Positions 16,428 through 31,660 of a DNA stretch of 31,660 nt are shown here, piece by piece (the stretch's first letter is position 1; the number at the start of each line of letters is the position of its first letter). Where the stretch lies: positions 1 to 31,660 of IMG/VR virus record IMGVR_UViG_3300046824_000062; one strand, 5' to 3'. A program made the translations under genes and the position numbers. The notes under the pieces were generated by a model. It had not been told where the DNA came from. It saw only the letters and a program-made list of their open reading frames with translations, and searched no databases. This DNA is from a virus.

Positions 16428-17336
16428 ATGAAGATCACCATCGTCCGCGAGAAGCAGCCGCACCACCCGCTGCTCGGGCGCAACGTCAACCACGACAGTC
16501 GCAGCTGGTCGTACGCCCTCCAGCCGCAGGACACCCCGATCCGGTCGGTGCGGCACGCCGCCTACATCGGGATCATGGACCAGGGCGACGTCGGCTCCTG
16601 CACGGGCAACGCGTCCGTGGCCTGCGCCTACCGTGCCCCGTTCTACGCCCCGGACGCCCCCGCCTGGCAGTACGAGCCGACCGAATCCGGCGCACTGACC
16701 TGGTACTCGCAGAACACCGCAGGCGACGACTACGCGGGCACCTACTACTACCCGACCGGGTACGGCGACGACACCGGCTCCGACGGCCTCACGTCATCGA
16801 AGGTCGCCATGCAGGCGGGCATCATCACCGGCTACCAGATGGCCGGTGACCTCGCGTCCTCCCTGGAAGCCCTCCAGGATCGGCCCGGGATCACCGGGCT
16901 GCCCTGGTACAACAGCATGTTCGACGCGCCCGCGTCGGGCCTGCTCACCGTCGACACCAGCTCCGGCCTCGCAGGCGGCCACGAGCTGTGCGTGGACGAG
17001 GTCGTCGCCGTCGATTCCCCCGGCAACGGGACCGGCCGCCTGCTGGTCGGCGGGCCGAACAGCTGGGGAACCAGCTGGGGTGCGCAGGGCCGCTGGTATC
17101 TGCCCGCGAACGACTGGTGGGCGCTGAGGCAGCAGCAGGGCGACGTCTATTTCTGGACGGCGAAGTCGCAGCCCGCCCCACTCCCCACCCGGGATCCGGA
17201 ACAGACGTTCGACGACAACGACCTGGCCCTGTGGGTGGAGACGACACCATTCCGCCACGACCGCCACACGGCGCCGCTGATCGTGCACGCCGCCCACTCC
17301 CTGGAGACCTGGGCCGCCTTGAAGGGACTCGTCTGA
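16428..17336 (+). CDS. Papain-like (C1-type) cysteine protease in the tail module
   Basis: 302 residues; ATG at 16428 follows AGGAGGAGGAG (a GTG-like longer frame to 16404 is not needed). All papain landmarks are present in order: QGDVGSCTGNAS with oxyanion Gln52 and nucleophile Cys58; GGHELCVDEVVAV with His185; and GGPNSWGTSWGAQGRWYLP with Asn211. No signal peptide or pro-region is evident. A roughly 60-residue C-terminal extension follows the fold. It lies between the gp10-like gene and the tail chaperone, overlapping the latter by ATGA, in the place where the tail tube gene usually sits. It could process a virion protein, act on host surface proteins from the virion, or be injected; the sequence does not say which. 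Confidence 0.88.
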   Translation: MKITIVREKQPHHPLLGRNVNHDSRSWSYALQPQDTPIRSVRHAAYIGIMDQGDVGSCTGNASVACAYRAPFYAPDAPAWQYEPTESGALTWYSQNTAGDDYAGTYYYPTGYGDDTGSDGLTSSKVAMQAGIITGYQMAGDLASSLEALQDRPGITGLPWYNSMFDAPASGLLTVDTSSGLAGGHELCVDEVVAVDSPGNGTGRLLVGGPNSWGTSWGAQGRWYLPANDWWALRQQQGDVYFWTAKSQPAPLPTRDPEQTFDDNDLALWVETTPFRHDRHTAPLIVHAAHSLETWAALKGLV

Positions 17337-29469: not shown

Positions 29470-29604
29470 CTCCTCGACGTTTTCGATCTTGCGCTTGCGC
29501 TTGACCCGGTACGACTTCTGGATGGCCAGCAGTTCCTGCTGCCGGGCGTTGTACTCGCGCCGCTCGGCGGCCCGGCGCTGGGTGCGCTCCCCCCGGCTAT
29601 TCAT
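29452..29604 (-). CDS. Small basic protein downstream of the HNH gene
   Basis: 50 residues, below usual length limits: MNSRGERTQRRAAERREYNA, RQQELLAIQKSYRVKRKRK, then IENVEESRPEQ. Highly charged helix with many Arg/Lys. Its start overlaps the HNH gene stop by eight bases, so it is the last gene of the minus operon 30545-29452. A GATCGAAAA site in its own orientation (29488-29480) codes KIEN. Possibly DNA- or RNA-binding; unproven. Confidence 0.65.
   Translation of the reverse strand: MNSRGERTQRRAAERREYNARQQELLAIQKSYRVKRKRKIENVEESRPEQ
29480..29488 (-). repeat. GATCGAAAA site 9
   Basis: Minus-strand context CGCAAGATCGAAAACGTCG; codes KIENV in the minus-strand 50-aa gene. Confidence 0.72.
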
Positions 29605-29998
29605 CGGCCCGGTAGGTCAGGGCGTAGAACGGGGTCAGGTTGCCTTCGTCGAACCATCGGTATCCGGCGTCCTCGGTGAGGTACCACCAGCCGCGACCGT
29701 TGACGGTGTAGATCATGGCGGGCACCTCGCGCGGGTCGACGCCGGAACGCCGCTCGATGACCCATCCGTCGGCGATACACCGGGCGACGGTCGACGCGGC
29801 CAGGGTGCCGTCGTGGCAGACCCGGCACAGCATGAGCAGGTTGCGCGGGTCGTTGGAGACGGCGCTCGCGACCCCGTGCACGCCACCAGAACCGCGTGTC
29901 ATGCGGTGGTGCGGGTCGAGCCTTCCGGAAAGACCGCAGCCCTCGCACAGGCCGTTTGAGCGGGCCTGCGCGAGGGCTTTCGCCTGGTCGAAGTTCAT
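29597..29998 (-). CDS. HNH endonuclease
   Basis: 133 residues; ATG overlaps the preceding TGA (ATGA). The HNH core is clear: Cys18-Glu-Gly-Cys21, LDPHHRMTRGSGG with His30-His31, SNDPRNLLMLCRVCHDG with Asn53, Cys58, Cys61 and His62. The four Cys would bind a structural zinc. A C-terminal part of about 60 residues (YTVNGRGWWYLTEDAGYRWF) is extra. Phage HNH proteins often work with terminase at cos ends or as homing enzymes; no terminase gene is in view, so the role is open. Confidence 0.88.
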   Translation of the reverse strand: MNFDQAKALAQARSNGLCEGCGLSGRLDPHHRMTRGSGGVHGVASAVSNDPRNLLMLCRVCHDGTLAASTVARCIADGWVIERRSGVDPREVPAMIYTVNGRGWWYLTEDAGYRWFDEGNLTPFYALTYRADE

Positions 29999-30183
29999 CA
30001 GGGCGCCGCCTTGCACTCGGCGAGGTGGAGCCGCGCCCCCTCGGTGATCGAATCGAGGTTCGACCAGTCGGCGAGAGTGATGGTGATGCCCCACTCCCCG
30101 CAGACGCAGTCCTCCGTGATCCGCGCGATGAAGCGGCCTGCGCCGGAGGCGTGCATGTCGATGCCGACCTTGATCCGCTTCAT
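29998..30183 (-). CDS. Small hypothetical protein upstream of HNH
   Basis: 61 residues: MKRIKVGIDMHASGAGRFIA, RITEDCVCGEWGITITLADW, then SNLDSITEGARLHLAECKAA. Beta-beta-alpha pattern with Cys-x-Cys and a late Cys. Coupled to both neighbours by ATGA overlaps, so co-translated with the HNH enzyme. Family not recognised. Confidence 0.68.
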   Translation of the reverse strand: MKRIKVGIDMHASGAGRFIARITEDCVCGEWGITITLADWSNLDSITEGARLHLAECKAAP

Positions 30184-30545
30184 CAGCGCGGCGCCCCGCT
30201 GACGGGGGCAGTGATCCGGACCAGCTCCTTGCAGCCCTGCATCGCGGGGGAGAAGCCCATCCCGGTGTCGCGGATGACCGCGTACTCCGGGTCCCGTCCG
30301 GCCTTCTTCAGCAGCCGTCGGCGGCGCCGGGGGGTAAGCCGGGGGCCGTAGATGCCTAGCCGCCGGGTGGTGCCCATCGGCTTGCCCTTTTCCGGCTCGC
30401 CGGGGCAGTCCTGCACGGCCAGGCAGCGCACGGTGTGGCCGTGCAGGTCGTGGCCGGGGCAGTCCGGGTGGGGGTGGGTGTCGGTCAGCTCGCGGTGGTC
30501 GGCGAGGTCGGCCGGGGTCATCAGGCCCTGGGTGGTGGGGGTCAT
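30183..30545 (-). CDS. His/Cys-rich then basic hypothetical protein
   Basis: 120 residues; ATG at 30545 chosen for GAGGAG six bases upstream. The N-terminal half has clustered metal-type residues (HPHPDCPGHDLHGHTVRCLA, VQDC). The C-terminal half is basic (GPRLTPRRRRRLLKKAGRDP) and resembles short phage proteins with an LTPRQRRRL-type helix. First gene of a four-gene minus operon (this, 61-aa, HNH, 50-aa) behind the element at 30556-30575. A zinc-dependent nucleic-acid binder is a guess. Confidence 0.68.
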   Translation of the reverse strand: MTPTTQGLMTPADLADHRELTDTHPHPDCPGHDLHGHTVRCLAVQDCPGEPEKGKPMGTTRRLGIYGPRLTPRRRRRLLKKAGRDPEYAVIRDTGMGFSPAMQGCKELVRITAPVSGAPR

Positions 30546-30555
30546 CTCGTCTCCT

Positions 30556-30575
30556 CTGTAGGTCTCCAGCATACA
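30556..30575 (-). promoter_or_regulatory. Promoter-like element for the HNH operon
   Basis: Minus strand TGTATGCTGGAGACCTACAG, -10 TATGCT at 30573-30568. Fifteen of 20 bases match the 8809-8828 element; GAGGAG and the ATG at 30545 follow directly, so the leader would be under 20 bases. No -35 seen. Confidence 0.6.
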
Positions 30576-30591
30576 CCACGGAAGCCAGAGA

Positions 30592-30626
30592 CGCCCCGGC
30601 CAGGTCGTGCACACCCGGCCGGGGCG
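30592..30626 (-). terminator. Hairpin downstream of the Cys-rich gene
   Basis: Perfect 10-bp G/C stem (30592-30601 with 30617-30626), 15-base loop. It ends the minus gene 30666-30950 and separates it from the promoter of the HNH operon. Confidence 0.6.
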
Positions 30627-30665: not shown

Positions 30666-30950
30666 TCAGCAAGGGCAGTGCTTCGTCTTGCTGTGCTTCG
30701 GGTTCGGCCAGTGGCCGGTGGCCCGCTTCTCCAGGTTGGCGCAGTGCCCGTCGAGACGGTTGCCGTGCAGGTACTTGCCGAGGTGCTCCTTGCACCGGCA
30801 GAACGCGCACGGTTCAGCCCACCGGATTTTCGCCGCGCCCTCGCCCTCGGTCCAGTAGGCGTCAAGCTTGGCGGCGCCCGCCGCGCCCTTCGGGGTGACG
30901 GCTGCGCGTAGGGCATAGCCGAGGTCTTGGGCGAGGCGGGCCAGCTTCAT
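30666..30950 (-). CDS. Cys/His-rich zinc-binding hypothetical protein
   Basis: 94 residues: MKLARLAQDLGYALRAAVTP, then an acidic linker, then CAFCRCKEHLGKYLHGNRLD, HCANLEKRATGHW and HSKTKHCPC. The C-terminal 50 residues have five or more Cys and several His, enough for two zinc sites. No ribosome site is seen; TACTCT lies six bases before the ATG, which suits a leaderless transcript. Function unknown. Confidence 0.7.
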   Translation of the reverse strand: MKLARLAQDLGYALRAAVTPKGAAGAAKLDAYWTEGEGAAKIRWAEPCAFCRCKEHLGKYLHGNRLDGHCANLEKRATGHWPNPKHSKTKHCPC

Positions 30951-30967: not shown

Positions 30968-31408
30968 TCAGAGGCCCGTCTTGGACACTCCGTACGTGGC
31001 CTGCGCGTGGGTGAAGCCGTCGTATTCGAGCTGGCCGATCAATCCGCTCTTGGAGAACGGCTGCCCGTCCAGGTAGTTCTTCGCGGTCGCGGCGGCCTGG
31101 GCCTTCCAGTCGACGTTCAGGGAGTCGACGGCGGCCGCCGCTGCCTTGACCGAGTAGCCCTCATACTTCAGCTGGCCGATGAGCCCCTTGCGGGAGAAGC
31201 TCTGCCCTTCGAGGTAGTTCTTGGCGGTCCGGGTGGCGTTGCGCTGCTCGGTGCTGACCGGCGGCACGGTCGTCTTCGGCGAGGCGTGCCGGGCCGCCGC
31301 CGTCGTCGCGGCCGGTCGGCCAGTCGGGTCGGTGTTTCCCGGCGTGGCGCCGCAGCCGATGGCGGCGACCGCGACCGCGATGGCCGTCAGGATCTGAAGC
31401 TTCTTCAT
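30968..31408 (-). CDS. Ltp-like surface lipoprotein (probable superinfection exclusion)
   Basis: 146 residues from ATG at 31408 with GGAGGAG upstream. A lipoprotein signal is clear: MKKLQILTAIAVAVAAIGCG, lipobox A-I-G-C with Cys19. A Thr/Ala/Pro stalk (about 20-55) leads to two copies of a roughly 45-residue helical repeat: TAKNYLEGQSFSRKGLIGQL with KYEGYS, and TAKNYLDGQPFSKSGLIGQL with EYDGFT. This is the 'host cell surface-exposed lipoprotein' repeat known from the Ltp protein of Streptococcus thermophilus phage TP-J34, which blocks DNA entry of related phages. Here it would be anchored outside the actinobacterial membrane. The role is inferred from the family. Confidence 0.87.
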   Translation of the reverse strand: MKKLQILTAIAVAVAAIGCGATPGNTDPTGRPAATTAAARHASPKTTVPPVSTEQRNATRTAKNYLEGQSFSRKGLIGQLKYEGYSVKAAAAAVDSLNVDWKAQAAATAKNYLDGQPFSKSGLIGQLEYDGFTHAQATYGVSKTGL

Positions 31409-31428
31409 GATGTCTCCTCCACGGGGTT

Positions 31429-31660
31429 TCACAGGTGTGCTCGGATCTCCACGGGGACGGCGAGGACGCGCGGCCCGCTGTTGGTGCTGATGTAGCCGGT
31501 GAGGGTCGTCCGCACGGCAGTGCCCGGCAAGATCGAAAACGATTCGGTGACGCTAGTCGCGAAGTCCGTCACCGACACCGTCACCCGGACCGGCGCGGGA
31601 CGATCCGAGACGTCCCGGGACACGATGAGACGGGTTGGGCGGCTGCGCCCCCCCGCGGTG
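31429..31660 (-). CDS. 3' part of a hypothetical gene cut by the window end
   Basis: The minus frame is open from 31660 to the stop at 31429 and probably starts beyond the window; a GTG at 31623 is an alternative start giving 64 residues. Visible sequence: SRDVSDRPAPVRVTVSVTDF, ATSVTESFSILPGTAVRTTL, then TGYISTNSGPRVLAVPVEIR. Beta-rich, no membrane segment. A plus-oriented GATCGAAAA site (31531), opposite to the gene, lies inside. It ends 20 bases before the Ltp gene start, so the two may share a transcript. Confidence 0.6.
   Translation of the reverse strand, partial: TAGGRSRPTRLIVSRDVSDRPAPVRVTVSVTDFATSVTESFSILPGTAVRTTLTGYISTNSGPRVLAVPVEIRAHL
31531..31539 (+). repeat. GATCGAAAA site 10 (against the gene)
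   Basis: Context GGCAAGATCGAAAACGATTC on plus, inside a minus-strand gene that reads SFSIL here. Confidence 0.72.

What the first reader, a model, noticed from the sequence alone, without database searches (positions are those of the whole stretch)
30968..31408. Ltp-type superinfection-exclusion lipoprotein in an actinophage
Lipobox plus two well-kept TAKNYL-x-GQ-x-FS-x-x-GLIGQL repeats match the Ltp family first studied in a Streptococcus phage, where it stops DNA injection of other phages. Its presence at the edge of the minus-strand accessory region suggests expression during lysogeny or early infection.
Basis: partly seen in the sequence, partly recalled or inferred. Interest (0 to 1): 0.58.

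Follow-up and report, generated by a model that had tools for sequence, protein, structure and literature searches.

The report
Ltp-type phage exclusion lipoprotein
A phage, probably of actinobacteria, carries a gene for a membrane-anchored protein of a known family that stops other phages from injecting their DNA; the gene is an ordinary member of that family, but it sits in a spot where related phages carry different surface lipoproteins, and the phage does not look like one that integrates into its host.

Summary
An ORF at 30968-31408 (-), 146 aa, has a signal peptide with Cys19 and two PF07553 repeats (E 4.6e-24); the AlphaFold2 model matches the crystal structure of TP-J34 Ltp (4eqq, rmsd 1.2). 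It is a new member of the Ltp family, long annotated in actinophages: 127 phage records match, 100 of them Gordonia phages, and an Ltp gene in an apparently obligately lytic Gordonia phage, GTE6, was already called unexpected in print (PMC4524720, passages read). Blocking of DNA injection is inferred, not shown. The repeat domain is net +3, not acidic as in TP-J34 (-3), so the published electrostatic model is doubtful here. New: ltp occupies a conserved slot upstream of a small Cys-rich gene. Of 29 scorable group records, 16 carry Ltp and 13 another lipoprotein. In one, the Ltp leader, anchor and 3' flank are kept while the repeats are replaced by a different Cys-rich domain. A dispersed 12-bp motif noticed in passing remains unexplained.

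The parts
30968..31408 (-). ltp coding sequence, 146 aa, stop included
31352..31408 (-). signal peptide and lipobox Cys19
   Evidence: PS51257-like pattern met; G+LPP-like pattern not met
31253..31351 (-). Thr/Ala/Pro-rich spacer, residues 20-52; mostly low pLDDT, read as disordered
31118..31252 (-). Ltp repeat 1, three helices (53-68, 73-82, 87-96)
30983..31108 (-). Ltp repeat 2, three helices (101-115, 120-129, 134-142)
31414..31420 (-). ribosome binding site GGAGGAG
30666..30950 (-). next gene downstream, 94 aa Cys-rich (CxxCxC), PHROG 6439 of unknown function; conserved edge of the lipoprotein slot
31429..31659 (-). upstream small ORF, runs off the record; weak relatives in G006 and G020
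29597..30094 (-). HNH endonuclease (PHROG 740), conserved member of the same minus-strand block; the aligned part starts near residue 26-33
30183..30614 (-). small ORF between HNH and the Cys-rich gene, partly conserved
31531..31542 (-). copy of the dispersed motif TCGTTTTYGATC, upstream of ltp; in several relatives such a copy lies just upstream of the slot gene's ribosome site

Best explanation
The gene encodes a phage superinfection-exclusion lipoprotein of the Ltp (PF07553) family. Inferred working: after infection the protein is exported, lipidated on Cys19 and held on the outer face of the host membrane; a disordered spacer carries a rigid six-helix repeat domain that meets the injection machinery of a later phage, probably its tape measure protein, and stalls DNA entry. 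As this phage group shows no integrase, the protein most likely protects the cell during the lytic cycle or a pseudolysogenic (carrier) state rather than in an integrated lysogen. Shown here: family, predicted fold, lipobox pattern, synteny, absence of integrase domains in the records searched. Inferred: export, exclusion, target, timing.
For: PF07553 twice, E 4.6e-24; PHROG superinfection exclusion E 1.1e-33; 4eqq by sequence E 5.7e-7 and by fold, E 3.1e-4, TM 0.85 on the target, rmsd 1.2. All nine Ltp proteins of the group with an intact N terminus have a PS51257-like lipobox; the tenth is cut off by its record end. Ltp is in 9 of 24 capsid-related records, in a syntenic position, and in 16 of 29 records where the slot can be scored. 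No PF00589 or PF00239 in 25 of 25 group records, 14 of which are 50-59 kb long. Cloned TP-J34 Ltp lowers plating of phage P008 to 10^-7 to 10^-9 (PMC3952083, abstract and sections 3, 16, 17 read). An Ltp-like gene of C. acnes phages is tied to exclusion in a pseudolysogenic state (PMC11480721, abstract and two sections read).
Against: No functional test. The repeat domain is net +3 (11 basic, 8 acidic) where TP-J34 is -3; the nine relatives range from -3 to 0, so the published acidic-Ltp to basic-tape-measure contact is not evident. Ltp-like proteins are also common in bacterial genomes (323 confirmed of 442 stretches, 80 kept), and how many of those act against phages is not known here. The stricter lipobox pattern is not met. 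HTH_3 repressor-like matches exist in 3 of 21 records searched, weakly in group members G006 and G024 and strongly in the temperate G028.
Confidence: 0.62

Rival explanations
1. Same exclusion role, but serving an integrated or otherwise stable lysogen, as in TP-J34 where ltp lies in the lysogeny module.
For: Prototype biology (PMC3952083); G028, outside this capsid group, has ltp beside an integrase; a dispersed motif in the group resembles repressor sites in layout.
Against: No PF00589 or PF00239 in 25 of 25 group records and no PF13614 ParA in 21 of 21 searched; the capsid protein finds no prophage relative in genome contigs.
Confidence: 0.12
2. A surface lipoprotein of another use: it changes the host envelope or binds a host factor, and exclusion is at most secondary.
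For: Many bacterial Ltp-domain proteins; the same slot holds other lipoproteins without an Ltp domain in 13 of 29 records; net charge unlike TP-J34.
Against: The closest relative of known function, by sequence and by fold, is an exclusion protein.
Confidence: 0.2
3. A RecX-like regulator: the three-helix repeats resemble RecX.
For: Foldseek ranks RecX chains 3-8 (E 0.17-0.55); NCBIfam RecX E 6.8e-4 but 19.7 bits against a cut-off of 336.
Against: 4eqq is far better (E 3.1e-4, rmsd 1.2 against 2.1-4.1 for RecX); signal peptide and lipobox pattern place it outside the cytoplasm.
Confidence: 0.02

Closest known systems
Ltp of Streptococcus thermophilus phage TP-J34 (PDB 4eqq)
   Same: lipoprotein signal, spacer, two three-helix repeats, predicted fold within 1.2 A over the aligned part
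   Different: 34% identity in the structural alignment; Thr/Ala/Pro spacer instead of Ser-rich; net +3 instead of -3; no integrase domain in the phage group, whereas TP-J34 is temperate with ltp in its lysogeny module (PMC3952083)
Lipoproteins of Gordonia phages (GTE6 orf12, Sour, Tangerine, Stormageddon, Clawz, Hanem and others)
   Same: 41-51% identity over the repeat region; no integrase domain in 8 of 8 isolates searched
   Different: other gene neighbourhoods: shortly before the portal gene in GTE6, Kwekel and Tangerine; near replication genes in Clawz and Hanem
gp41 of Cutibacterium acnes phage Aquarius
   Same: phage of an actinobacterium, membrane-anchored, thought to give superinfection resistance without integration (PMC11480721)
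   Different: that paper's model of gp41 is mainly beta (cystatin/VirB8-like) and its BLASTp against Ltp is not significant (E 0.83-1.1); the window protein is a true PF07553 member
Psychrobacter phage Psymv2 orf32 and Acinetobacter phage AbIPP1 exclusion lipoprotein
   Same: Ltp repeats, annotated superinfection exclusion
   Different: Gram-negative hosts, gene inside the head-tail cluster; Psymv2 has an integrase

Membership tests
Ltp / host cell surface-exposed lipoprotein (PF07553) | tandem PF07553 repeats above the curated cut-off | tested here: met
   84.7 bits, cut-off 23.2, two stretches
Ltp / host cell surface-exposed lipoprotein (PF07553) | repeat fold of 4eqq | tested here: met
   predicted model, block means of pLDDT 93-98 over the repeats; 4eqq_A E 3.1e-4, TM 0.85 on the target
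Ltp / host cell surface-exposed lipoprotein (PF07553) | lipoprotein signal peptide with lipobox Cys | tested here: met
   PS51257-like pattern met at Cys19; G+LPP-like pattern not met because of Gln5 (recalled patterns); no signal-peptide predictor was at hand
Ltp / host cell surface-exposed lipoprotein (PF07553) | Ser-rich spacer between anchor and repeats (TP-J34) | tested here: inconclusive
   spacer present, rich in Thr, Ala and Pro rather than Ser
TP-J34-type mechanism | net acidic repeat domain facing a basic tape measure C terminus | tested here: not met
   repeat region net +3, TP-J34 stretch -3, relatives -3 to 0; own tape measure last 100 aa net -1. A whole-domain sum says little about a surface patch, and the target would be another phage's protein
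TP-J34-type mechanism | gene in the lysogeny module of a temperate phage | tested here: not met
   no PF00589 or PF00239 in 25 of 25 group records; several records are fragments, and other integrase types were not sought
TP-J34-type mechanism | blocks DNA injection of other phages | not testable with these tools
   needs plating and DNA-entry assays

The most novel reading that the evidence does not exclude
The phage group keeps an exclusion-lipoprotein slot: a fixed place beyond the lysis genes where a common leader, signal peptide and spacer carry interchangeable outer domains (Ltp repeats, a Cys-rich DUF3761-like domain) next to other small lipoproteins. By this reading the non-Ltp occupants are new, unrecognised exclusion proteins, swapped to change which rival phages are shut out during lytic infection.
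Probability: 0.3. Interest if true: 0.6.

Novelty: new member of a known kind. Interest (0 to 1): 0.36.

Why it matters
By itself it adds one more member to a known exclusion family. It would matter more if the slot reading holds: it would give a short, testable list of uncharacterised phage lipoproteins that may block injection, and show that phages without integrases invest in exclusion and exchange its specificity. It also adds to the cases, remarked for GTE6 (PMC4524720), where Ltp is found in phages that appear lytic, which runs against the prophage-protection view of the family.

Tried and rejected
Close relatives of the Ltp protein itself in viral contigs by single-sequence patterns: none confirmed; solved by using the capsid protein and then an Ltp alignment. 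DNA-level relatives of window 7000-31660 among isolated phages: none. Capsid relatives in bacterial genomes, to name the host: none; the host stays unknown beyond 'probably actinobacterial'. PADLOC found nothing for Ltp and only weak HNH effector matches for 29597-30094. A RecX reading was weighed and rejected (see rivals).

Mutual exclusion of Ltp and the second lipoprotein was my first idea and is wrong: G020, G022 and 3300003323_000316 (a near copy of G020) carry both. Repeated gain and loss of ltp on a capsid tree is suggested only: 4 changes on the best tree, 3-4 in bootstraps, not clearly fewer than with shuffled labels (mean 4.3), and well-supported branches force only 1. Two earlier trees used wrongly framed capsid proteins and are discarded. 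I tried to see whether the ltp frame of G021 continues across its record ends; it does not read cleanly, so I claim only that the two halves of ltp lie at opposite ends of that record. Eight distant relatives of the Cys-rich gene (51-65% identity, L369-L376) showed no lipoprotein by the same rule and were left out of the 29; one more record had only 94 bases of upstream sequence and was not scored.

The dispersed motif was followed only so far. It is not in the 50 kb of phiAsp2 that I read nor in 80 bacterial Ltp loci. One paper search for such motifs listed nothing that I recognised as the same motif.

Full report
What is there. The ORF at 30968-31408 on the minus strand starts with ATG at 31408 after a GGAGGAG ribosome site and encodes 146 aa. 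PF07553 matches twice, 84.7 bits; the two best PHROGs are 'superinfection exclusion' families; the only PDB sequence match is 4eqq, TP-J34 Ltp. An AlphaFold2 model from an alignment of ten group members is confident from about residue 51 on and shows six helices in two sets of three; Foldseek gives 4eqq as best hit with rmsd 1.2 and 34% identity. Residues 1-37 are of low confidence, as expected for a signal peptide and disordered spacer.

The phage. The window is an IMG/VR virus record of 31,660 bases. It holds portal, major capsid, major tail, tape measure, tail, lysin and holin genes on the plus strand, then a minus-strand block. The capsid protein finds 24 related IMG/VR records, 14 of them 50-59 kb, and distant relatives in 848 isolated phages, almost all of actinobacteria. 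One record, G002, has a capsid protein 100% identical to the window's and has no Ltp match; the stretch of it that aligns with the window ends well before the ltp position.

The neighbourhood. In nine relatives ltp lies at the same place: lysis genes, then on the opposite strand HNH, a small ORF, a conserved 94 aa Cys-rich protein, then ltp. In the window 17 bases separate ltp from the Cys-rich gene. Median identity of the window protein to its nine relatives is 58% for Ltp (47.7-64.9%, best segment, median coverage 75%), 77% for the Cys-rich protein and 71% for HNH, but 56-60% for four lysis- and tail-side genes, so Ltp is not unusually fast for this phage group.

The slot. I gathered relatives of the Cys-rich gene (37 loci) and, with the window, scored what lies upstream. 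Eight distant loci (51-65% identity) show no lipoprotein by my rule, and one close locus has only 94 bases upstream. Of the remaining 29, 16 carry Ltp and 13 carry another lipoprotein instead; 3 of the 16 also carry the 86-96 aa lipoprotein. By the lipobox rule alone 26 of 29 are positive; the other three are called by homology to Ltp or to the 86 aa lipoprotein. As a control the same rule fires in 27 of 656 two-kb strand pieces of the held regions, the slots themselves included. In G019 the 5' leader, signal peptide and spacer are alike at DNA level to ltp of G005 (73% over 135 bases, E 4.7e-17), and the 3' end and flank too (78% over 55, E 3.4e-6), while the repeats are replaced by a short Cys-rich domain with a weak DUF3761 match (16.8 bits, cut-off 29). 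That is one case and the domain name is below cut-off. Another slot lipoprotein of 134 aa matches PHROG 478, which is labelled a recombination directionality factor; the match includes the lipobox region, so I doubt that label.

Lifestyle. PF00589 and PF00239 give no match in 25 of 25 group records. In 15 further records PF00589 rings in 2, G028 and Psymv2, and PF00239 in none; 8 of 8 Gordonia isolates with Ltp have neither. G028 is instructive: it was found through Ltp and not through the capsid, and its integrase (16446-17036) lies just beside ltp. ParA PF13614: 0 of 21; HTH_3: 3 of 21, strong only in G028. Many records are fragments of unknown completeness. In G001 the gene order runs on from the record's end to its start, and in G021 ltp is split between the two ends, which suggests near-complete genomes. 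I conclude that the group is probably not integrating. A carrier or pseudolysogenic state is not excluded.

Mechanism. In TP-J34, Ltp is anchored outside the membrane, its repeats give exclusion, and negatively charged residues are thought to meet the positive C-terminal region of the tape measure protein (PMC3952083, sections 3, 16, 17 read; the primary structure paper of 2013 was not read). Two Ltp proteins differing at eight positions exclude different phages (same source). By family and predicted fold the window protein should work in the same way. Its net charge of +3 is against a simple copy of the electrostatic contact, though sums over a domain do not describe a surface patch. I hold exclusion likely (about 0.6) and the tape measure as target less so (about 0.4).

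Novelty. Ltp in actinophages is known: 100 Gordonia phage records match, many annotated lipoprotein or superinfection exclusion. PMC4524720 (passages read) reported PF07553 in GTE6 and found it unexpected in what appears an obligately lytic phage. PMC11480721 (abstract and two sections read) ties an Ltp-like gene to exclusion in pseudolysogeny. Searches on DUF3761 with phage and on Ltp or exclusion lipoproteins with Gordonia listed no paper whose title or abstract start describes a lipoprotein slot with exchanged domains; this is no proof that none exists.

A motif in passing. TCGTTTTYGATC occurs 95 times in the held regions of 14 group records, where shuffled versions of the core average 0.04 with a maximum of 3. 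Copies fall 59 antisense, 14 sense and 22 intergenic by a rough gene call; orthologous copies are not independent. Selection appears to act on the DNA: the tripeptide IEN, which antisense copies spell, is written ATCGAAAAC 87 times and ATCGAGAAC 4 times, though GAG outnumbers GAA 7975 to 2340 overall. A copy lies directly before the ribosome site of ltp in G004, G005, G008, G010, G013 and G021 and of the 86 aa lipoprotein in G001 and G012; in the window it is about 120 bases upstream. In layout it recalls stoperators of cluster A mycobacteriophages (PMC6550527, passages read), but those are mainly oriented with transcription and no repressor is known here.

Noticed in passing
window 818+, 4145-, 5961-, 15800-, 17452-, 27423+, 31531- and group records: Dispersed asymmetric motif, consensus about RTCGTTTTYGATCWTG: 7 matches with at most one mismatch in the window against 0.03 expected; 95 exact copies of the 12-bp core in the held regions of 14 records; mostly antisense within genes, kept at nucleotide level. 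Function unknown.
   Followed up: partly
L067:8519-8851 (G019): Lipoprotein with the Ltp-type leader, anchor, spacer and 3' end but a Cys-rich DUF3761-like domain in place of the Ltp repeats.
   Followed up: partly
L063:7054-7311 and orthologues in G001, G012, G020, G022, G024: 86-96 aa lipoprotein family; the G003 member has no match in phage records or PHROGs.
   Followed up: partly
upstream of the Cys-rich gene in 3300005548_000045 and 3300005577_000005 (L346, L347): 134 aa lipoprotein matching PHROG 478, labelled recombination directionality factor although it has a lipobox; the label may be wrong.
   Followed up: no
window 30666-30950: Highly conserved 94 aa Cys-rich protein (70-83% identity in 14 relatives), PHROG 6439, function unknown.
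   Followed up: partly
L339 (phiAsp2, first 50 kb): Actinoplanes phage phiAsp2 has its own repeated motif around TTGACACTTCAC, 12-15 copies of its 11-mers in 50 kb.
   Followed up: no
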